A DNA stretch of 23,768 nt, from positions 47,680 through 71,447 of the IMG/VR virus record IMGVR_UViG_3300030106_006393; one strand, given 5' to 3'. Below, piece after piece: positions 1,916 through 23,768 of the stretch; position 1 is the stretch's first letter, and each line of letters opens with the position of its first letter. Source of the stretch: a virus. The translations under genes and the position numbers were made by a program. A model generated the notes under the pieces. It searched no databases, had not been told where the DNA came from, and saw only the letters and a program-made list of their open reading frames with translations.

Positions 1916-2612
1916 TCTATATGGAGACAAGATCGGAGCCGTAGAGTATGTTAGTCATATGGGCTCCGACTTGTCTGTCGTTAACGCTGCAAGAGTCTCC
2001 TTTGGCTCGAAGAGGGATGAGCTGAATGAAAAAGATATTAAACTTATTAACTACCTCATGCAGCATAACCACACTAGTCCATTTGAGCATTGTACTATTA
2101 CAATGCGTTTTACTGTTCCTTTATTCATAAGGTCCCAGCATCATCGACACAGAACGTGGGCTTACAACGAGATCAGCAGGCGATATACGTCCGTTGATAT
2201 GCAGTTTTATCAGCCAAAAGAATTCAGAACACAACATAAGTCTAATAGACAGGCAAGTGAAGACAAACTGATTAATCCTCTGGTATCTTTCAGAGACTCC
2301 TATCAGGTTGGCCATTCTGGATACGCCGCACGTCTAGTTGAAAATCACCATGCAACATCTATGACTCTATATCAATCTTTGCTAAATTCTGGAGTCTGTA
2401 GAGAACAAGCAAGAGGGGTTCTCCCTCAGAATTTGTACACGCAATATTACGGCACCGCAAATCTTCACAATCTATTAAAATTTGTATCGCTCCGTAGCCA
2501 CGACGGAGCACAATGGGAAATCCAAAGAGTGGCACAGGCTTGCTTGGCCATAGCGAGGGAGCACTTCCCTGAGTCTATAAAAGCGTATGAGAAGAAGCAT
2601 ATGGAGTTGTGA
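1905..2612 (+). CDS. thyX: Flavin-dependent thymidylate synthase ThyX
   Basis: Makes dTMP from dUMP using FAD, NADPH and methylenetetrahydrofolate; 235 residues, normal for the family. The ThyX signature RHR-x7-S is at 81-91 (RHRTWAYNEIS), followed by RRY. Other family marks are HTSPFEH (56-62), EQARGVLPQNLYTQYY with the dUMP-binding Arg, and a C-terminal RSHDGAQWEIQ block. Oddity: the residue that is Ser in the fuller motif RHRxxSxNExS is Ala here (A86). The start is a GTG at 1905 preceded by GGGGAAGAA and overlapping groES by 11 bases. The next in-frame Met is at residue 19 and would delete the first conserved strand. Together with dUTPase (11083) it gives a dUMP-to-dTMP route. Confidence 0.95.
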   Translation: MRFDLYGDKIGAVEYVSHMGSDLSVVNAARVSFGSKRDELNEKDIKLINYLMQHNHTSPFEHCTITMRFTVPLFIRSQHHRHRTWAYNEISRRYTSVDMQFYQPKEFRTQHKSNRQASEDKLINPLVSFRDSYQVGHSGYAARLVENHHATSMTLYQSLLNSGVCREQARGVLPQNLYTQYYGTANLHNLLKFVSLRSHDGAQWEIQRVAQACLAIAREHFPESIKAYEKKHMEL

Positions 2613-4675
2613 TGAAAAGATTTTTGTTTTTGTTTTTGTTTTTATTGGTTGGGTGCGAAGATGATACTGCCGCTACAGGTGGCAGATCTCTGGCTGACAA
2701 GGGTTCAACATTCGTTGAAAATGGCGACGTAAGAGTACTCATTCCCAGAGATATGCGTCAGCGAGAGCCAGATCAGTTTGTCTATATCGTCGATGCAAGA
2801 ATGCGATTTGATATGATCATAGACGCAGCACCGCCACCACAGGTGTGCAGAAGATGGGGGATGAAAGAAGAGTGTACCCTGCCTGATTTTGAGGGACCTT
2901 GCGCTCAAGGTGAAAGAATCTGCAGAGAGACAGAGTGGAGCGACTGTGTTCCAGTTAACTTTCCCCGTCAAGAGGTTTGTGATGCTATCGACAATGATTG
3001 TGATGGAAGACTAAACGAGTCCCCACTGTCTCAGAACGAGGTTCTCTCCAAAATGTGTTACACAGGCGCTCCAGGGACCGATAAGAACGGCCCTTGTCGC
3101 AGCGGTATTTCATTGTGCGAAGAAGTTATGGTAAGCACAGATGCAGGAGTTATCATCGCGTATGAGTATGGAGACTGCCAGAACCAAATAGTGCCCTCTG
3201 AGGAGGAGTGTGATTCGATCGATAATGATTGTGATAGATCCACGGACGAAGGCGTGCTAAACGCTTGTGATCAATGCGGAGAAGTTCCAGTTGAAGAGTG
3301 TGACGGTATTGATAATGATTGTGACGACTCTACGGACGAAGGCTTATTGAACGCTTGTGACGAATGTGGCCCATTGCCAGAAGAGCTGTGTGATTTTATT
3401 GATAATGACTGCGACGGTGAGATCGATGAAGACGCTGGTGACTGTGAATGTGAAAACCCGCTTTATGTCCCACAGCCAGAAAAGTGCAATGGCTTAGACG
3501 ATGACTGTGACGACTTTATTGACGAAGGCCCCGGCGGCGGCCCATTGACTTCTCTTTGTGCAACCAATCAGCAAACAGGCGAGGTTGAAACCTTCGCAAG
3601 AAGAGAAGATGGTCCAAATTATGTTGGCGGTGATTGTCGTCTTGGTCTCGCAATTTGCGAATCACGACGCGTCGATGGAGAAGAGGAATATGGGTACTTC
3701 GAGTGCCAGGAAGAAATACTCCCCAGAAACGAGCGTTGTAACGAGGAGGATGATGACTGCGATGGTATAGCAGATGAAAACTTTCAACAAGGAAGCGTCG
3801 CAGTGATGATGGTTGTAGACGTCTCTGGTTCAATGCAGGATGATGAGTTGTTCGCTGCCTTCAACGCAACAAGGGACACTGTCTCGGTCTTACACGCTCA
3901 GGGCGTACAGGATGTTTGCTATATGTTGGCAGTAGTTGGAAATGACGAAATGGAAGATCCATATCTGCAAGCTTATGCGGATAACTGCGTCCCCGGCGTT
4001 GAAGACCCTCCTATCGTTCCAGTCGAGGATATGAGAGGAGCAGTTGTAGCCCTTCAGGGTCAGATTGCTGGCAACCTAATCAACCAAGGTGGTGCTACTG
4101 AAAACACGTACGATGCAATAGGTAAGTTTTTTACAGATGATCTGCTCGATTGGGACAACGATGGCTTTCCAGATGAAGTTGAGTGGGCGACTAACCGCCC
4201 TGGACTTAATCCTGTTCACACAACAGATTTGAGCCGATATACTCACAGAATAGTTGTTGTTCTAGGTGACGAGCGAGGTCAAGGTGTTTTGTATGATGAA
4301 CATACTGCAGCAATGGCAATGGCACGCTCTGGAGGAATGGTTTTTATAATCGGCCCAGCACACTTGGAAGCAAGCTACTCTCAGTTGATGGACAATGGAG
4401 CCGTTCGCAGAGAAATGGGGAGAGGTCTTGGTAGAAATGATAACGTAGAAAACATAACCGAAGCGATAGTAGAGGCTATCGAAGAGGCTGCTTGTATCAA
4501 CAGGAGAGTTGGGCAACCCGCTCCGGACGGTGGCGTAGATGACGGAGGTGTGACCGATGCAGGCCTCGATGGTGGTTTGGCTAGAAATCTAATACCTCTT
4601 GTTCCAAATTACAAGGAGACATCCGCAACTTATCGAACCGACAAGATGTGGTCAGTTTACAGGATGTGTTTCTAA
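2612..4675 (+). CDS. Secreted lipoprotein with six MopE-type metal-binding motifs and a VWA domain
   Basis: 687 residues. An N-terminal KR plus a hydrophobic F/L run and the lipobox LVGC (acylated Cys15) mark a lipoprotein. Six C-x3-D-x-DCD-x3-[DN]E motifs, typical of MopE-like 'putative metal-binding' repeats, lie at about 123, 200, 230, 260, 292 and 376. Those at 200, 230 and 260 fall in a 30-residue tandem repeat. A VWA domain follows (~396-626), with the MIDAS motif DVSGS at 403-407 and an EF-hand-like loop DWDNDGFPDEVE at 513-524. The tail is Asp/Gly rich. The start is the ATG at 2612 (TGATG overlap with thyX), chosen over the GTG at 2609 because GGAG sits 5 bases upstream of it. Known of the families: MopE motifs bind metal and VWA domains mediate adhesion. 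Inferred: it is displayed on the infected host's envelope, perhaps for superinfection exclusion. The exact role is unknown. Confidence 0.85.
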   Translation: MKRFLFLFLFLLVGCEDDTAATGGRSLADKGSTFVENGDVRVLIPRDMRQREPDQFVYIVDARMRFDMIIDAAPPPQVCRRWGMKEECTLPDFEGPCAQGERICRETEWSDCVPVNFPRQEVCDAIDNDCDGRLNESPLSQNEVLSKMCYTGAPGTDKNGPCRSGISLCEEVMVSTDAGVIIAYEYGDCQNQIVPSEEECDSIDNDCDRSTDEGVLNACDQCGEVPVEECDGIDNDCDDSTDEGLLNACDECGPLPEELCDFIDNDCDGEIDEDAGDCECENPLYVPQPEKCNGLDDDCDDFIDEGPGGGPLTSLCATNQQTGEVETFARREDGPNYVGGDCRLGLAICESRRVDGEEEYGYFECQEEILPRNERCNEEDDDCDGIADENFQQGSVAVMMVVDVSGSMQDDELFAAFNATRDTVSVLHAQGVQDVCYMLAVVGNDEMEDPYLQAYADNCVPGVEDPPIVPVEDMRGAVVALQGQIAGNLINQGGATENTYDAIGKFFTDDLLDWDNDGFPDEVEWATNRPGLNPVHTTDLSRYTHRIVVVLGDERGQGVLYDEHTAAMAMARSGGMVFIIGPAHLEASYSQLMDNGAVRREMGRGLGRNDNVENITEAIVEAIEEAACINRRVGQPAPDGGVDDGGVTDAGLDGGLARNLIPLVPNYKETSATYRTDKMWSVYRMCF
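2621..2643 (+). repeat. Short tandem repeat (TTTTTG) in the lipoprotein signal peptide
   Basis: Three exact TTTTTG units plus a partial fourth encode the alternating Phe-Leu core of the signal peptide. The unit is two codons, so gain or loss of a whole unit would stay in frame and only change the length of the hydrophobic segment. Confidence 0.7.
3209..3430 (+). repeat. 90-bp tandem repeat encoding MopE metal-binding units
   Basis: Two full 90-base units (3209-3298, 3299-3388) and a partial third (from 3389) share strong DNA and protein similarity. Each unit starts CD.IDNDCD..[TI]DE and the first two continue LNACD.CG..P.E. Exact 90-base spacing of the Cys codons shows expansion by in-frame duplication. 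The other three MopE motifs of the protein (from ~2978, ~3485 and ~3737) are irregularly spaced and more diverged. Confidence 0.8.
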
Positions 4676-5799
4676 TGAAAAGGATTTTCGTTCTGATCTT
4701 AGCTATCGGTTGTACGGACGACAGTCCCCCATCGATGCCGACAGATGTGAAGCTTGTGTACAGGGATGCGTCACAACCCGTTGTGGACGCACTCATCATA
4801 CCAGCCGACGCTGCACCTGTTGTGGATGCTGCTCCTGACGCTTCGCAGAGACCTCCTTTCGAGTGTCCCTTGAGTGATACGGTTGATCGGTTGGGATCTG
4901 AACTTTGCGAGAGAGATGATGATACTGTCGGACAAAGGGCAATTTGGTGCGACAAGGGATATATACGTTTAGGTCCGTGCGATCCATGCGAAGTAGAAAC
5001 TTGCGACAACGAAGACAACGACTGTGACGGCCGTATCGATGAAGGAGAATTCTCTTGCAATACTGCCTGTGGCCCCGGCAGCGGCATCTGTATAGATGGA
5101 TCGGTCGAAGGGTGCGATGCTCCTGAGGTCATCAACACTGACGTGCTCTTCATAGTTGATTGGTCAAGTTCAATGGGGGCTCGTATAGATGCGACTCTTG
5201 ATGCGCTGGGAAGATTTTCAAGAGAATTTCAAACAAGCGAACAAGTCAAGTGGGGCTTAATTGTGGGGCCAATAAGAACTCCAAGAGAAGACAATCCAGA
5301 AATAAGTCAAGAGACCTTGATTCTTATATCAAACATATCTACATTTGATGACTTTCTTGTTCGCTTTGTTGCATCCCCTCGTGTTCACACTGGAGGCAAG
5401 GAGATGCTTTTGGATGCCGTATACATCGCATTGAGAAATGTTAGTGGGAATCTTGCAAACAACTTAGAAGAATCCAGATGGACTCAGGGCGCCGCATCTG
5501 TGCCTCCTTTGGGAGAGTTTATCATCAACTGGAGACCTGGGGCAGATAAAATTATGGTTGTGTTTTCTGACGAAGTCGAAAGAACTTACATGGACCCGCC
5601 AAACACGATCTACAGGGTTGATGACGCCCTTGCGGCATCTCCAAACTTAAAGCTATATACTTTTGCGGGTGGATTTTACGGTTGGGATGAACTCGCCGCA
5701 CGTACCGGTGGAGCAAACTTCGCACTAACAGCAGAAGCAGATGAGATGTACGAGAGTCTAATGACGATCTTAAGCGACGTCTGTAGGCCACGGCAGTGA
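4675..5799 (+). CDS. Second secreted lipoprotein with one MopE motif and a VWA domain
   Basis: 374 residues from the ATG at 4675, which overlaps the previous stop (TAATG). Upstream in-frame codons would only add nine residues before the signal peptide, so this start is preferred. MKR plus a hydrophobic stretch ending LAIGC gives a very short lipoprotein signal (Cys13). A D/A/P-rich linker (~30-58, e.g. DAAPVVDAAPDAS) is of the kind seen on Myxococcota-like surface lipoproteins. One MopE motif, CDNEDNDCDGRIDEG, starts at 110. A VWA domain (156-370) has the MIDAS motif DWSSS at 162-166 and a further likely metal Asp in VVFSDE (D299). The architecture is the same as that of the preceding gene with fewer repeats, so the two are probably old paralogues acting together at the cell envelope. 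The function is inferred, not shown. Confidence 0.83.
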   Translation: MKRIFVLILAIGCTDDSPPSMPTDVKLVYRDASQPVVDALIIPADAAPVVDAAPDASQRPPFECPLSDTVDRLGSELCERDDDTVGQRAIWCDKGYIRLGPCDPCEVETCDNEDNDCDGRIDEGEFSCNTACGPGSGICIDGSVEGCDAPEVINTDVLFIVDWSSSMGARIDATLDALGRFSREFQTSEQVKWGLIVGPIRTPREDNPEISQETLILISNISTFDDFLVRFVASPRVHTGGKEMLLDAVYIALRNVSGNLANNLEESRWTQGAASVPPLGEFIINWRPGADKIMVVFSDEVERTYMDPPNTIYRVDDALAASPNLKLYTFAGGFYGWDELAARTGGANFALTAEADEMYESLMTILSDVCRPRQ

Positions 5800-7659: not shown

Positions 7660-10600
7660 AGTTAAGTCAACCATTCCTTTCGTTGGTTTGCATGCCCACT
7701 CCGTTGCGGGAAGTATCTTTGATGCCCTGGGATATCCGCAGGAGCATATGGACTTTGCCTATCAGAACGGCATGGACGCACTAGCGCTAACTGATCATGG
7801 GAACGCCAACGGTCTGGCATATCAAGTTTTGCATGCTAAAAAGATGCAGGCTGAAAACAAAAACTTTAAGCCTATCTTTGGCGTTGAGGCATACTTTCTG
7901 CCCTCTGTTGCAAACTGGAGAACTGAGTATGAGAAGGCGCTAAAGGACAAGAAGAAAAAGGTCGACGACACTCAGTCAGGAACCACCGTCGAGAATGAAG
8001 AATCAAAGAAGTTGATGAAAAACATTCTCAACCGTAGACGTCATCTGATTCTTTTGGCACAGAACCAAAAGGGTCTAAAGAACATCTTTAAGTTGATCTC
8101 ATCAAGTTATGACAAAGAGCATTTTTATAGGTATCCCCGCGTCGACTATGCCTTGCTCAAGAAGCACAATGAAGGCGTCATCGCTGCGTCTGCCTGCTTG
8201 GGCGGAGTGTATGCTGGCTGCTATTGGGAGAATCGCGACAAAGGTGAAGATCAAATCCTCACAGCGTTTCGTAACACAACGCAAAAGATGCAGTCCATCT
8301 TTGGAGACAGGTGGTATGGAGAGTTGCAGTGGAATAATGTACCAGAACAGCATGAGCTAAACAGATATATTATCCAGATGCATCACGAGTTTGGTCTTCC
8401 GCTGATTTCAACTGCAGATAGCCACTATCCAGACAAGGAGGCCTGGAAAGACAGAGAGCTTTACAAGCGCCTAGGCTGGCTTGGCAAGCGTCCTGAGTGG
8501 ATGTCTGCTGAGTTGCCAATCGACGTCGAAGAGATTGGGTATGAACTTTATCCGAAGAATGGCGATCAGATGTGGGAGTCTTACAAGAAGTATTCAAAAG
8601 AGTGTCAGTGCGAATATGATGACAACATCGTAAAGAATTCAATTACAGAAACCCACAGGATCGCACATGAAAGGATCGAGACATTCTTTCCAGACAACAC
8701 GGTGCGTCTGCCAGACTTTGTCGTGCCTCAGGATACGACACCAGGCGAGGCTTTGCAGAAGTTGACTGCTGAAGGTTTGAGAAACTTGGGCCTATCTGAT
8801 GACAAAGATTACCTAGACCGCGCAGCTCTAGAGATCGAAGTCATTGACTCTAGAGGGTTCAGTAAATACTTTCTAACTATGAAGGCTATCGCAGATAGGG
8901 CCAAGGAGACCCAATTAGTGGGCGCTGGAAGGGGCTCTGCAGCCGGTTCTCTGGTCGCCTATGCCCTAGGTATCACCCAAGTTGACCCTTTAAAGTATGG
9001 TTTACAGTTTGAGAGGTTTCTGACAAAGGGTGGCTCTGGATATCCAGATATTGACTTTGATACAGCAGAACCCATGAAACTAAAGGAGGAACTGGTTGAG
9101 GAATGGGGCGAGAACACAGTGGTTCCGATCTCTAATTGGAACACGCTACAGCTCAGGTCCCTCATCAAAGATATTTCAAAGTTTTACGATGTGCCTTTTA
9201 CAGAGGTAAACACCGTCACCAGCAAGATGATCTACGAGGCTACTCCACTAGCCAAAAAGAAGCATGGGATCACGGCAGGTGTTTACAATCCCACATTCGA
9301 AGAGGTAATGGAATTTTCGGATTCGCTAAAAAAATTCCTCAGTAAATATCCTCATATTAAGACTCACGTCGAGGCTCTATATGGACAGGTAAGATCTTGC
9401 TCAAGGCATGCCGGTGGCGTGGTTGTTGGCGAGAATCTAAACGAGTGGATGCCAATCATTGCATCTGGTGGTGTGCGCCAGACTCCATGGAGCGAAGGCA
9501 TGAACGTCCGCCAACTGGAGCCTATGGGCTTTATCAAGTTTGATTTATTGGGTCTCGCCTCTTTGCGCATGATCGAGGGTGCAATCAGGCATATTCTAAA
9601 GAGGCATAAGAATGTTCCTGAACCTACGTTCGATCAGGTAAGAGAGTTTTACAACGAAAAGCTCCACCCGGATAGGATTGATCTTGGTGATCAGAACGTT
9701 TGGAAAAACATCTTTCAAGATGGTAAGTGGGCCGGCATCTTTCAGTTTACAGAGGACGGAGCACAGAAGTTTTGCAAGAGAGTTAAGCCAAGCAATCTAA
9801 TTGAGCTGTCAGCTATAACTAGTATTTATAGACCAGGCCCATTATCGGCCAATGTTGACAAGAAGTTTGTGTCGGCTAAGAACAATCCAAATGATGTGGA
9901 ATATGTTAACGACTTTGCCCGCAATGTTACAGAGGAAACCTTCGGCTTCCTTATCTTTCAGGAGCAGATCGCTATGTTGGCTCACAAGCTCGGCAAAGAC
10001 CTGTCTCTTGACGAGGGCAACAAACTTAGAAAGCTTCTAACAAAGAAGGGCACAGGAGAGGTTCAAGAGCAGAAGGATAAGATCTTCTCAAAGTTTCTTG
10101 ATGGTTGCCTGGAGAAAGGAATGAGAAAACATGAAGCAAGAGAACTATGGGAGACCTTTGAATACTTTTCCGGCTACGGCTTTAACAAGTCGCACGCTGT
10201 TTCTTACTGTATGCTGTCGTTTCAGTGTGCTTGGCTGCTCAACTATTATCCAGCAGAGTGGACCGCAGCTTTCTTGGACAAGGAGCCCGAGACGCGCAAA
10301 GAAAAGGCGATCAACATTTCAAAGTCTCTCGGATTTGAAATCGCACCATTGAACGTGAACACTTCTGGAATGGTGTGGGAGATCTCGCCAGACGGTAAGA
10401 CGCTTATCCAGCCCTTGTCGTCAGTCAAGGGTCTTGGAGAGAAGGCGATCGAGCAGATCCTAAACAATCGTCCGTTCAATACGGTAGAGGAGTTTTTGTT
10501 CAACGAGAACATTGTATATTCAAAACTGAACAAGAAGGCTCTCGATGTCCTTTGTCGATCTGGTGCGATGGATGATCTAGTTGACGATAGGTTCACCGGA

Positions 10601-21121: not shown

Positions 21122-21160
21122 ATGCTCGAAAATGAGCACTTGAGAACAAGGAGAAATAGT
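21122..21160 (+). promoter_or_regulatory. Structured hsp20 leader with Shine-Dalgarno in a short hairpin
   Basis: The leader holds TGCTC (21123-21127) paired with GAGCA (21134-21138), and right after it CTTG (21139-21142) paired with CAAG (21147-21150). The second hairpin takes up part of the AAGGAG ribosome site (21148-21153). A small heat-shock gene with a partly masked ribosome site could respond to temperature, but the second stem is only four pairs, so this is tentative. Confidence 0.45.
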
Positions 21161-21529
21161 ATGAGTTTGCAGATTTTAAGAGGGGATCCTTTTTTTAGTG
21201 AGCTTTTTGGAAGGCCATCAGTTAGAAACACTGGTCCAAAAACAAGCGTGGCAACTACGGACGACGGGTATGAGTTGTCTGTTGTCGTGCCGGGCGTGAA
21301 CAAGGGAGACATTGATATCAATGTTGACAAGGGAACTTTGACAGTATCCTACAAGACCACAGAAGAAACAAAGACTTCGTTTGCGACAAAGTCGTTCACC
21401 AAGTCTTGGACACTTCCAGAGAATACCGACGCTGAATTTATCACAGCTAAATCTGAAAACGGGATTCTTACGTTGTCTGTGCCAACCACAGATAAGTCGA
21501 TCCCAGCCAGAACTATTACGGTACAGTGA
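21161..21529 (+). CDS. Hsp20 / small heat-shock protein
   Basis: 122 residues from the ATG at 21161, which has AAGGAG 7 bases upstream. The upstream ATG at 21122 would add 13 residues but lacks a ribosome site. The protein opens MSLQILRGDPFFSELFG. An alpha-crystallin core follows (~27-118), with DDGYELSVVVPGVNKGDIDI, the turn GTLTVSY, the domain-closing NGILTLSVP, and a short tail. The tail lacks a clear I-x-I anchor (it has IPARTITV). Such proteins hold unfolded clients for chaperonins such as the GroEL here; Hsp20 genes are frequent in marine phages. It has its own strong promoter and terminator, so it is an independent single-gene unit. Confidence 0.94.
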   Translation: MSLQILRGDPFFSELFGRPSVRNTGPKTSVATTDDGYELSVVVPGVNKGDIDINVDKGTLTVSYKTTEETKTSFATKSFTKSWTLPENTDAEFITAKSENGILTLSVPTTDKSIPARTITVQ

Positions 21530-21549
21530 TAGTTTAATTCTTTAAATTT

Positions 21550-21580
21550 AAAAGGCATCCGATTGGGTGCCTTTTGTTTA
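21550..21580 (+). terminator. Rho-independent terminator after hsp20
   Basis: An 11-pair stem (AAAAGGCATCC at 21550-21560 with GGGTGCCTTTT at 21565-21575, one G-T wobble) with the four-base loop GATT and a T-rich continuation. It ends the hsp20 transcript just before the next promoter. Confidence 0.92.
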
Positions 21581-21584
21581 TGTA

Positions 21585-21613
21585 TTGACTAATTATTATA
21601 AAAAAGGTATAAT
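21585..21613 (+). promoter_or_regulatory. sigma70 promoter of the right-edge gene, leaderless start
   Basis: TTGACT (21585-21590), a 17-base spacer and TATAAT (21608-21613). The predicted +1 is 21620, exactly the A of the ATG that opens the following long gene. No ribosome site lies between. Confidence 0.8.
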
Positions 21614-21619
21614 CTTTTT

Positions 21620-23768
21620 ATGAACTTCAACTCTATTTGGAAATCCTATCTCAACGAAGAAAAAGAACTTGAACTGCTTGCTGAAGCGAGAGTCAAGGAC
21701 ATTAAGAAAAAGTATCCCGTCCTCACCGACACTGGCTGGCTTGCTTATAGTCGCGAAAGACTAGACAGCGTCCTTGGTCCCAAGGGCGTATCAAAGTATC
21801 TCTTATTTTGCATGAGGGAGCTTCACAAGAACTTCAAGCAAGACATCGAAGACTCTGAAAGCTGGATTGATAGTGAGCATTATGATGTTCAAGATGTGAA
21901 AACAGTGGCAGAGGAGATCCTTGAGGCTGTCCTTGCGTTTCAAGAAAACCAACAGCGCATAGAAGAAAAGGATATCTACAAGTACAATATTGGAGAACTG
22001 CAGCAGGCCTTGTCTAAATTGGGATTGTCCTCTAGCCAGAAAAAGGAAAAAGAGAAAGCTGAAGCAATGAAGACCACAGAGATCGTTTACGATGAGAACG
22101 GCATCTTCGCCGTCCGTCCGCTTTCTGAGACCTCCTCTTGTTACTTTGGCAAGAACACGAGATGGTGTATCTCTGCAACACAATCTAGAAACTACTTTGA
22201 TCAGTACACAAATGACGAAAAAGCCTTTGTGATGGTAAGGTTTGATGGTATTCCTGCCGATAACAGCATGCACAAGTTGGCTCTTGTTTATGATAAAGAG
22301 GGCAACCTTGAAGAGGTTTTTGACGCTCCTGACAACGATCATAGTGATATCATCGTTTATCGAGCTGCAGCCCTCCACTTCGGTGAAGAGGACTATGAGC
22401 TAATCGAAGACGAAGACAAGGAAGAGAAGATCAATGAGATCGCATCCGACATCATACAATATGGATATATGAATGTTCTAGATAATCCTCCAGACAAGAC
22501 CGCCGGCTATGAAGCCGCATGTCACAAAATAGAGGAAGATTTAGCAGATGACATCAAGCATGCTGACTATGGCTTTGAAGTTGACGATTACGGTGAAGGT
22601 AGTTACGTTAGCTTTTGGGCAAGTTTCAACATTGAGTTGGACAATGAGGTGTTTGAAAACGGAAAGTACCAATTCGATGACGGCTATCATACTGCTGGCG
22701 AGATCATTAACAAGATGTCAGAGGCACAAATCTACTTTGAAGATGTCGACATAAACGATTATTCAGGTAAAACCACTTTTCAATTCCGTATGGCTGCAGA
22801 AAACTACGAGGCAACTCCCGATGGTTATAGAGAACTATTAGAAGAAGTAGCCTTCCAAGAAAAGAGAAAATACCCTGCAATGCGAAGAATACTTTTAAAG
22901 TACCTTGCAGATGAAGAGTTCATACAACCCGCTGCATTTGATACCTTTAGAGCCAAATTAGATGATATACGTAAAAGCCTTAATCATTTTACAGCCACAG
23001 ATGCAGACTATGTTGGAGAAGAAGAAATACACTTCGCCGCAACTCCTATCGACACCAACATCGAATACAGTTATTTGAAATTTATCAGTGAGGAAAAGCT
23101 CGGCGGCAAATGGATAAATCCAGAGCTGACGAAAGGATTGACCGATGGTCTGCAAAGCCTAAACAAAGCAGTGCAAACTTATCTCGCACAACAATTGGAA
23201 CTTCCTATAGATGATCTTCCGCCAAGAATAGTTCAAGATTTGTCAATTCCAGATTCACTAGAGATGTATCTCTATCGTTCTTATGAAAAGGCACAAATTA
23301 TGATCAGAATATCTCTCGATAATCCAGAGGCGGATGACAAGGAGCTAGAGTTGGGGCTTAACATCGTGAAGTTCATTGACTCTAATTACGATTTAGTTGT
23401 CGAGGCTGCGAACAAATCTCTTTCAAACGTAGTCCAGAAGGCTCTGCAGATGCAAAAAGACATAGAAAACAACTTTCCTGAGCCTGTGAAGAAGCTTCTC
23501 GCGATGGCTAGAGAGTCTGGTAATTCTGATGTCGCAAGACTTCTAGATAGAATACCAGATTATACTCGCGGAGCGTACAAGCAATCTAGGCCATGGGTGG
23601 CTTCGTATCGCGGCCAAGGCGTAGCTCCAGAAGAGTACATATATAATTTAATAAGAAGTCAACTCTTGCGCCCTATATGGTCATACTTAAGAGGCATCCT
23701 TGACCCTGAAGGCAAAGTGTACATTCCACCGGGAGACACAGAGCATGCCTTTGAAATATACGCTCCAG
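21620..23768 (+). CDS. Large phage protein of unknown function, 3' end outside window
   Basis: At least 716 residues with no stop before the window edge. It begins MNFNSIWKSYLNEEKELELL, a short 'W..+L.E' front that I recall at the start of several large marine-phage proteins. The segment at ~153-200 (IVYDENGIFAVRPL, then SCYFGKNTRWCISATQSRNY, then FDQYTNDEKAFVMVRFDG) carries a tight Trp-Cys...Tyr-Phe motif typical of a phage family without assigned function. The middle is very acidic (GEEDYELIEDEDKEEKINEI). The end in the window is helical, with PWVASYRGQGVAPEEYIYN. No signal or membrane segment is seen. It may be a virion or host-takeover protein; the motif could be a catalytic site (Cys) but this is speculation. 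Translation seems to start on a leaderless mRNA. Confidence 0.85.
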   Translation, partial: MNFNSIWKSYLNEEKELELLAEARVKDIKKKYPVLTDTGWLAYSRERLDSVLGPKGVSKYLLFCMRELHKNFKQDIEDSESWIDSEHYDVQDVKTVAEEILEAVLAFQENQQRIEEKDIYKYNIGELQQALSKLGLSSSQKKEKEKAEAMKTTEIVYDENGIFAVRPLSETSSCYFGKNTRWCISATQSRNYFDQYTNDEKAFVMVRFDGIPADNSMHKLALVYDKEGNLEEVFDAPDNDHSDIIVYRAAALHFGEEDYELIEDEDKEEKINEIASDIIQYGYMNVLDNPPDKTAGYEAACHKIEEDLADDIKHADYGFEVDDYGEGSYVSFWASFNIELDNEVFENGKYQFDDGYHTAGEIINKMSEAQIYFEDVDINDYSGKTTFQFRMAAENYEATPDGYRELLEEVAFQEKRKYPAMRRILLKYLADEEFIQPAAFDTFRAKLDDIRKSLNHFTATDADYVGEEEIHFAATPIDTNIEYSYLKFISEEKLGGKWINPELTKGLTDGLQSLNKAVQTYLAQQLELPIDDLPPRIVQDLSIPDSLEMYLYRSYEKAQIMIRISLDNPEADDKELELGLNIVKFIDSNYDLVVEAANKSLSNVVQKALQMQKDIENNFPEPVKKLLAMARESGNSDVARLLDRIPDYTRGAYKQSRPWVASYRGQGVAPEEYIYNLIRSQLLRPIWSYLRGILDPEGKVYIPPGDTEHAFEIYAP

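What the first reader, a model, noticed from the sequence alone, without database searches (positions are those of the whole stretch)
21620..23768. Large Trp-Cys / Tyr-Phe motif protein of unknown role
The gene is over 2.1 kb, has its own promoter and terminator-insulated start, and carries the tight motif TRWCISATQSRNYFDQY, which suggests a constrained active or binding site. It could be a new enzyme family or a virion protein.
Basis: partly seen in the sequence, partly recalled or inferred. Interest (0 to 1): 0.55.

Follow-up and report, generated by a model that had tools for sequence, protein, structure and literature searches.

The report
Phage protein with capsid-packaging tag
This gene of a large environmental bacteriophage belongs to a widespread, unannotated protein family that seems to carry a short, cut-off tag for loading it into the virus head, so it may be delivered into the bacterium together with the viral DNA; what its conserved core does there is still unknown.

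Summary
The open frame at 21620 is coding, is cut by the end of the viral contig, and has complete relatives of 829-868 aa. The motif is conserved: G177, T180, W182, C183 and F193 are invariant in 46 aligned sequences. The family is unnamed (no Pfam; two PHROGs of unknown function), rare in isolate phages, frequent in metagenomic ones. Two results point to mechanism. First, 43 of 46 sequences have [L/I]-x-E at one aligned N-terminal position, usually residue 9 (LAE22 in the window protein, plus LNE13). That is the recognition motif of the T4 prohead protease; this phage encodes a protease of that type, and all 14 tested records with a T4-type major head protein do too. Second, the PA5oct homologue is annotated as found by mass spectrometry of virions. 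Best reading: a head-internal protein with a removable capsid-targeting propeptide, delivered with the DNA, like T4 Alt and IP proteins. Cleavage, head location and ejection are not shown. The core has the same predicted order of elements as the PcfJ domain and matches it in reciprocal fold searches, but lacks the PcfJ signature; its activity is unknown.

The parts
21549..21576 (+). terminator-like hairpin between the Hsp20-like gene and this gene
   Evidence: 12 pairs, 5 G-C, loop 4, T-rich tail; similar hairpin in L002 and L003, not clear in L004 and L005
21585..21613 (+). promoter-like site TTGACT-17-TATAAT, ending 6 nt before the ATG (leaderless-like)
   Evidence: 11 of 12 consensus matches; identical in L002-L004, partly kept in L005
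21620..23767 (+). the gene: 716 aa of a protein of about 855 aa, cut by the end of the contig
   Evidence: open frame; relatives of 34-97% identity over the same extent; complete relatives of 829-868 aa
21620..21685 (+). proposed capsid-targeting propeptide, residues 1-22, with two [L/I]xE sites: LNE13 and LAE22; LAE22 is the aligned site of the family
   Evidence: [L/I]xE at this column in 43 of 46 sequences, next best column 11 of 46; residues 1-14 are the only 14/14 identical window against L005
21626..22072 (+). helical N-terminal region, residues 3-151
   Evidence: AlphaFold2 model, mean pLDDT 84.8, pTM 0.58
22076..22378 (+). conserved core domain (residues 153-253), order b-b-a-(WC loop)-a-b-b-b-a, PcfJ-like in predicted fold
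   Evidence: PHROG 28193 E 1.4e-11 and 17056 E 5.9e-10
22157..22207 (+). motif TRWCISATQSRNYFDQY (residues 180-196)
   Evidence: T180, W182, C183, F193 invariant, Y196 at least 90% in 46 sequences
22424..23767 (+). variable middle region (residues 269-716); a conserved C-terminal domain of about 130 aa follows in complete relatives, beyond the window
   Evidence: segments 28-31% identical between L002 and L005 against 64% for the C-terminal segment

Best explanation
It is a head-internal (core) protein of a large T4-type phage. A short N-terminal propeptide (residues 1-13 or 1-22) would direct it into the prohead core. The phage's gp21-type (S77) protease would then cut it off after [L/I]-x-E, and the mature protein would be packaged with the DNA and delivered into the host. 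The payload is a helical region followed by a conserved Trp-Cys core domain distantly related in predicted fold to PcfJ. SHOWN: the N-terminal site and its conservation, the protease gene, the motif conservation, and the virion annotation of one remote homologue. INFERRED: targeting, cleavage, position inside the head, ejection, and any action on the host.
For: (1) [L/I]xE at one aligned N-terminal column in 43 of 46 sequences; two of the three exceptions read TLE and VVE; the next best column has 11 of 46; the peptide is 9 residues long in 23 of the 43. With a looser rule ([LIV]xE, E at residue 5-13), 35 of 43 non-redundant members against 129 of 511 other ORFs of the same loci and 14% of internal stretches. 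(2) The same phage encodes a Peptidase_S77 prohead protease, E 1.6e-30, and a T4-type major head protein. (3) Of 45 records tested, 14 hold a T4-type major head protein and all 14 hold the S77 protease. (4) The PA5oct homologue EST35_0205 is annotated 'structural protein, ESI-MS/MS'. (5) In relatives, unrelated proteins carry the same tag as the family member on the same contig: 5 of 632 ORFs (4 distinct) against a mean of 0.08 and a maximum of 2 for 200 sets of shuffled tags. (6) The first 14 residues are the only fully identical 14-residue stretch to the 37% identical L005 protein. (7) T4 rules as read in PMC9026906, sections 2.5 and 2.6: gp21 cuts after L/I-X-E; internal-protein propeptides of 10-19 residues target proteins into the head.
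Against: No cleavage or packaging data exist for this protein. The gene lies about 54 kb from the major head gene of its record, next to an Hsp20-like gene, under a sigma-70-like promoter. In PA5oct the homologue lies near the tail sheath (about 119-121 kb), not near the head genes (about 84-87 kb). The PA5oct structural annotation also covers a homologue of FtsH (passage in PMC6892783), so being listed may not mean being structural. The MIJ3 gel study named four other proteins. Many large records with the family show no S77 protease (e.g. G005, G013, G030; G049, G051, G055); they may be fragments, but this is not shown, and no background rate of S77 in IMG/VR was measured. The short homologue of CcrBL9, a genome without S77, lacks the site at the aligned place but has an IAE at residues 18-20, so it is no clean contrast. 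The window phage's own tag is not repeated on its other proteins.
Confidence: 0.65

Rival explanations
1. The N-terminal [L/I]xE is part of a conserved helix, not a cleavage site; the protein is a non-virion factor that acts in the infected cell (an enzyme or regulator made early).
For: The model draws residues 3-31 as helix; promoter-like sequence of sigma-70 type; neighbours are chaperone-like genes; many family-bearing records lack a detected S77 protease.
Against: The PA5oct homologue is annotated as found by virion mass spectrometry; the site follows the same rule as the T4 protease; unrelated proteins share the tag in relatives; no other column of the alignment comes near in keeping [L/I]xE.
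Confidence: 0.2
2. It is a virion protein, but of the tail or baseplate rather than the head interior.
For: In PA5oct the homologue sits in a run of MS-detected proteins next to the tail sheath gene.
Against: Prohead proteases act in the head; the family site fits them. In the window phage and in Salicola phage SCTP-2 the gene is not in a recognisable tail cluster.
Confidence: 0.1
3. It is a scaffold or core protein of the prohead that is degraded during maturation, not a delivered payload.
For: Helix-rich N-terminal region with a protease site; T4 core proteins are gp21 substrates (PMC9026906).
Against: Patchy presence in isolate phages, a strictly conserved core motif, and the virion annotation of the PA5oct homologue.
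Confidence: 0.05

Closest known systems
T4 internal head proteins (IPI-IPIII, Alt) with capsid targeting sequence
   Same: short N-terminal peptide ending in [L/I]xE in a phage with a gp21-type protease and gp23-type head protein
   Different: the body matches no Pfam family and only PHROGs of unknown function; cleavage and ejection untested
PHROG 28193 and 17056 (unknown function)
   Same: the window core matches both (E 1.4e-11, 5.9e-10); Salicola phage SCTP-2 gp435 is a full-length match to 28193
   Different: only residues 137-275 of the window protein match
PA5oct EST35_0205 / Callisto GBBBJNDB_00046
   Same: core motif, N-terminal region, N-terminal LYE site
   Different: 482-496 aa, 19% identical overall, different C-terminal part
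PcfJ domain (PF14284)
   Same: same predicted order of elements with the conserved Cys between the two helices; mutual structural matches in BFVD
   Different: Trp-Cys in place of HHCVG; no Pfam match; profile score reached by 12 of 1000 column shuffles

Membership tests
T4-type head-internal proteins with capsid targeting sequence | N-terminal propeptide of about 10-20 residues ending in [L/I]xE | tested here: met
   43 of 46 aligned sequences; LNE13 and LAE22 in the window protein
T4-type head-internal proteins with capsid targeting sequence | phage encodes a gp21-type (S77) prohead protease | tested here: met
   G000 9578-10021, E 1.6e-30
T4-type head-internal proteins with capsid targeting sequence | tag shared with other internal proteins of the same phage | tested here: inconclusive
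   seen in relatives (L030, L034, L043), not in the window phage
T4-type head-internal proteins with capsid targeting sequence | present in the mature virion | tested here: inconclusive
   only through the annotation of a remote homologue in PA5oct
T4-type head-internal proteins with capsid targeting sequence | cleaved by the protease and ejected with the DNA | not testable with these tools
   needs mass spectrometry or delivery assays
PcfJ (PF14284) | matches the Pfam profile | tested here: not met
   no PcfJ match up to E 1 for the window protein; three phage PcfJ proteins match at 2e-34 to 4e-39
PcfJ (PF14284) | HHCVG-x-Y signature | tested here: not met
   the window has RWCIS; only the Cys aligns
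PcfJ (PF14284) | predicted fold of the domain | tested here: inconclusive
   same order of elements; BFVD matches to PcfJ-named entries from E 4.8e-4 and back at 3.2e-3 to 5.6e-2
GNAT acetyltransferase fold | structural match of the window core to GNAT structures | tested here: inconclusive
   not among the leading rows for the window model, but GNATs fill the PcfJ list at Z 5.2-7.0
PHROG 28193 | profile match | tested here: met
   E 1.4e-11, residues 139-239 only

The most novel reading that the evidence does not exclude
Large environmental phages carry a series of head-packaged proteins with T4-like tags. The Trp-Cys core of this family is a diverged PcfJ/GNAT-like domain that acts on a host target at the moment of DNA entry, the counterpart of T4 Alt but with another fold. 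The PcfJ domain itself, found in many phages, would then be a diverged GNAT-like fold.
Probability: 0.15. Interest if true: 0.75.

Novelty: new member of a known kind. Interest (0 to 1): 0.48.

Why it matters
Head-packaged proteins are the first phage proteins to meet the host, but outside T4 and a few other phages they are hard to recognise. A conserved, sequence-readable N-terminal tag with a matching protease gives a test that can be run on metagenomic phages to list candidate delivered proteins. This family, found on 102 stretches with one narrow DNA pattern and with no assigned function, would be a first case.

Tried and rejected
Pfam on the window protein and on 46 sequences: no family for the core; low E-values there hit one or two members each and disagree, so they were dropped (25 of 54 families are shown). 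PDB by sequence: the designed-repeat hits have no stretch passing on its own and lie in the helical part; dropped. PDB by fold for the window model: best E 0.85, best Z 5.0; nothing usable, and a weak result does not show a new fold. An ADP-ribosyltransferase, by analogy with T4 Alt, was considered; nothing in the matches supports it. phrog_207 in 20 S77-negative records: no match, and nothing rang in the controls, so it says little. hhalign of the core (48 sequences) against PcfJ (41 sequences, two of 43 dropped): right register but weak (score 17.4; 12 of 1000 column shuffles reach it); the first 60 shuffles alone looked better than the larger set. The PcfJ model used 36 of the 43 sequences. 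The C-terminal domain of L002 has no match in isolate phages or Pfam. Paper searches for the motif strings and PHROG numbers, PcfJ alone, PcfJ-like/PcfJ domain, and PcfJ with acetyltransferase and phage listed no description of the family or the domain link; the one PA5oct DOI that I tried, from recall, is not held. Papers: PMC9026906 sections 2.5 and 2.6 read, plus passages; PMC9958956, PMC10052503 and PMC6892783 passages only; all others seen only in listings.

Full report
WHAT IS THERE. The frame from ATG 21620 runs open for 716 aa to the end of the window. The window is G000:47680-71447 of a 71,447-base virus record, so the gene is cut by the contig end. IMG/VR holds close relatives: L002 (93% identical, complete at 855 aa), L003 (63%, 868 aa), L004 (97%, cut) and L005/L006 (34%, 829 aa). 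The complete proteins end in a domain of about 130 aa that is 64% identical between L002 and L005, while the middle is 28-31%. That domain lies beyond the window and has no Pfam or isolate-phage match. A terminator-like hairpin and a promoter-like site precede the gene. The -10 box ends 6 nt before the ATG in the window and in L002-L004, with partial conservation in L005.

THE MOTIF IS REAL AND WIDESPREAD. PHROG 28193 and 17056 (unknown function) match residues 139-239 and 137-275. Isolate relatives are few: 10 phage records by the window protein, 14 by the Callisto protein, 17 by L058 (two or three of these by its C-terminal part only), out of 50,697. They are mainly PA5oct-like Pseudomonas phages, Salicola phage SCTP-2 (several copies) and Caulobacter phage CcrBL9. 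One degenerate DNA pattern of the motif finds 102 stretches in IMG/VR. In the 80 loci read, 82 ORFs carry the motif in frame; 72 have their own start, and 43 remain after removing near-copies. Alignment A4 holds 42 of these 43 (L072 was left out because its motif lies far inside) plus the window, L002, L003 and L005. In it G177, T180, W182, C183 and F193 are invariant, and E22, D118, Y176, G179, T184, A185, Y196 and D238 mark columns that are at least 90% conserved (at three of them, G179, T184 and A185, the named residue is the family's and the window has N, I and S).

THE N-TERMINAL TAG. E22 is the last letter of [L/I]-x-E in 43 of 46 sequences. Two exceptions read TLE and VVE; one (L099) lacks it, possibly through a wrong start. 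No other column comes near (next 11 of 46). The peptide up to E is 9 residues long in 23 of the 43 and 9-34 overall, start codons being uncertain in some. The residue after E is mostly G, Y, S, D or A. With a looser positional rule, 35 of 43 members pass against 129 of 511 other ORFs from the same loci (a set that can itself contain head proteins) and 14% of internal stretches. In the window protein there are two such sites, LNE13 and LAE22, and residues 1-14 are the only 14-residue window fully identical to the L005 protein. L/I-X-E is where the T4 prohead protease gp21 cuts, and T4 internal proteins use N-terminal propeptides of 10-19 residues to enter the head (PMC9026906 sections 2.5 and 2.6). 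In G015 and PA5oct the ORFs that hold the S77 protease and the major head protein begin with such sites themselves. On some contigs unrelated ORFs carry the same tag as the family member: 5 of 632, or 4 distinct since G015 and L030 are one contig; shuffled tags give a mean of 0.08 and a maximum of 2. In the window phage itself some other ORFs start with an [L/I]xE (e.g. 13467 and 15523) but not with the same tag.

THE PROTEASE. G000 has a Peptidase_S77 gene (E 1.6e-30; PHROG head maturation protease E 1.7e-55) and a T4-type major head protein. S77 rings in 14 of 51 other records with the family and 4 of 12 further ones, including records of 309 and 178 kb. T4-type major head protein rings in 14 of 45 records, and all 14 have S77. 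The S77-negative records that were tested for the head protein all lack it too, so their head module may be missing from the record; this is not proven, and some are large. The complete CcrBL9 genome has neither; its 249-aa homologue lacks the site at the aligned place but has an IAE at residues 18-20, so it is a weak contrast. I did not measure how often S77 occurs in comparable records without the family.

VIRION EVIDENCE. EST35_0205 of PA5oct, 61% identical to the Callisto protein, is annotated 'structural protein, ESI-MS/MS'. Its start reads MKLFEVFTLYE. Caveats: the gene is near the tail sheath; a MIJ3 paper passage notes that a PA5oct FtsH homologue is also called structural; and the MIJ3 gel study named four other proteins.

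THE CORE FOLD. The AlphaFold2 model of residues 1-268 (46 sequences) has pLDDT 84.8 and pTM 0.58: helices to 151, then b-b-a-(WC loop)-a-b-b-b-a. The PDB gives nothing usable. In BFVD the hits with E up to 0.001 (22) include the family itself, two Marseilleviruses, and two PcfJ-named proteins from E 4.8e-4, with more PcfJ-named entries below. I collected phage PcfJ proteins (three checked, PF14284 E 2e-34 to 4e-39) and modelled the domain (pLDDT 93.5, pTM 0.81): the same order of elements, with the Cys again in the loop between the two helices. Searched in BFVD, that model finds PcfJ proteins first and then entries that led the window's own list: A0A8S5T0B4 (3.2e-3), A0A8S5T035 (1.3e-2), A0A481YZT2 (2.5e-2), A0A516MAR6 (5.6e-2). 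Profile comparison puts Cys on Cys but is weak (12 of 1000 shuffles). So a distant relation is likely but unproven, and the protein is not a PcfJ member by signature. Against the PDB the PcfJ model is matched by GNAT acetyltransferases in nearly all of the 50 listed rows (Z 5.2-7.0), below the level the tool calls safe. The window model does not show this, and the acidic D238 after the last strand does not favour CoA binding there (inference).

VERDICT. A new, widespread family of probable head-packaged phage proteins: new in its payload, known in its targeting principle. Packaging is the best explanation (0.65); the action of the payload is open.

Noticed in passing
window 21585-21620: A near-consensus sigma-70 promoter whose -10 box ends 6 nt before the start codon, identical in three relatives and partly kept in the 34% identical L005: the mRNA may be leaderless.
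   Followed up: partly
window 2609-4675 and 4648-5799: Two consecutive genes with repeated DNDCDG-type Cys/Asp motifs and VWA-like DxSxS segments, of a kind I recall from myxobacterial-type bacteria; odd cargo for a phage and a possible clue to the host.
   Followed up: no
L007 7656-10788 and window 21122-23767: In Salicola phage SCTP-2 the family gene also lies close to an Hsp20-like gene, as in the window.
   Followed up: no
L213:86-613 (PcfJ domain model): The PcfJ domain model is matched by GNAT acetyltransferases in nearly all of the top 50 PDB rows; PcfJ may be a diverged GNAT-like fold.
   Followed up: partly
L043 4344-5339 and 7779-8720; L034 3847-4719; L030 5252-5623: Other proteins with the same MRAxxF-type N-terminal tag as the family member on the same contig; the L034 one has a sub-threshold GNAT match (E 0.024). 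Candidate further packaged proteins.
   Followed up: partly
L002 7947-8552: The gene directly downstream in relatives (201 aa, beyond the window) matches the LeuA allosteric dimerisation domain (E 5.3e-8).
   Followed up: no
BFVD A0A481YZT2, A0A481Z016, A0A481YW50: Proteins of Marseilleviruses LCMAC201/202 match the model at E 1.8e-6 to 1.0e-4.
   Followed up: no
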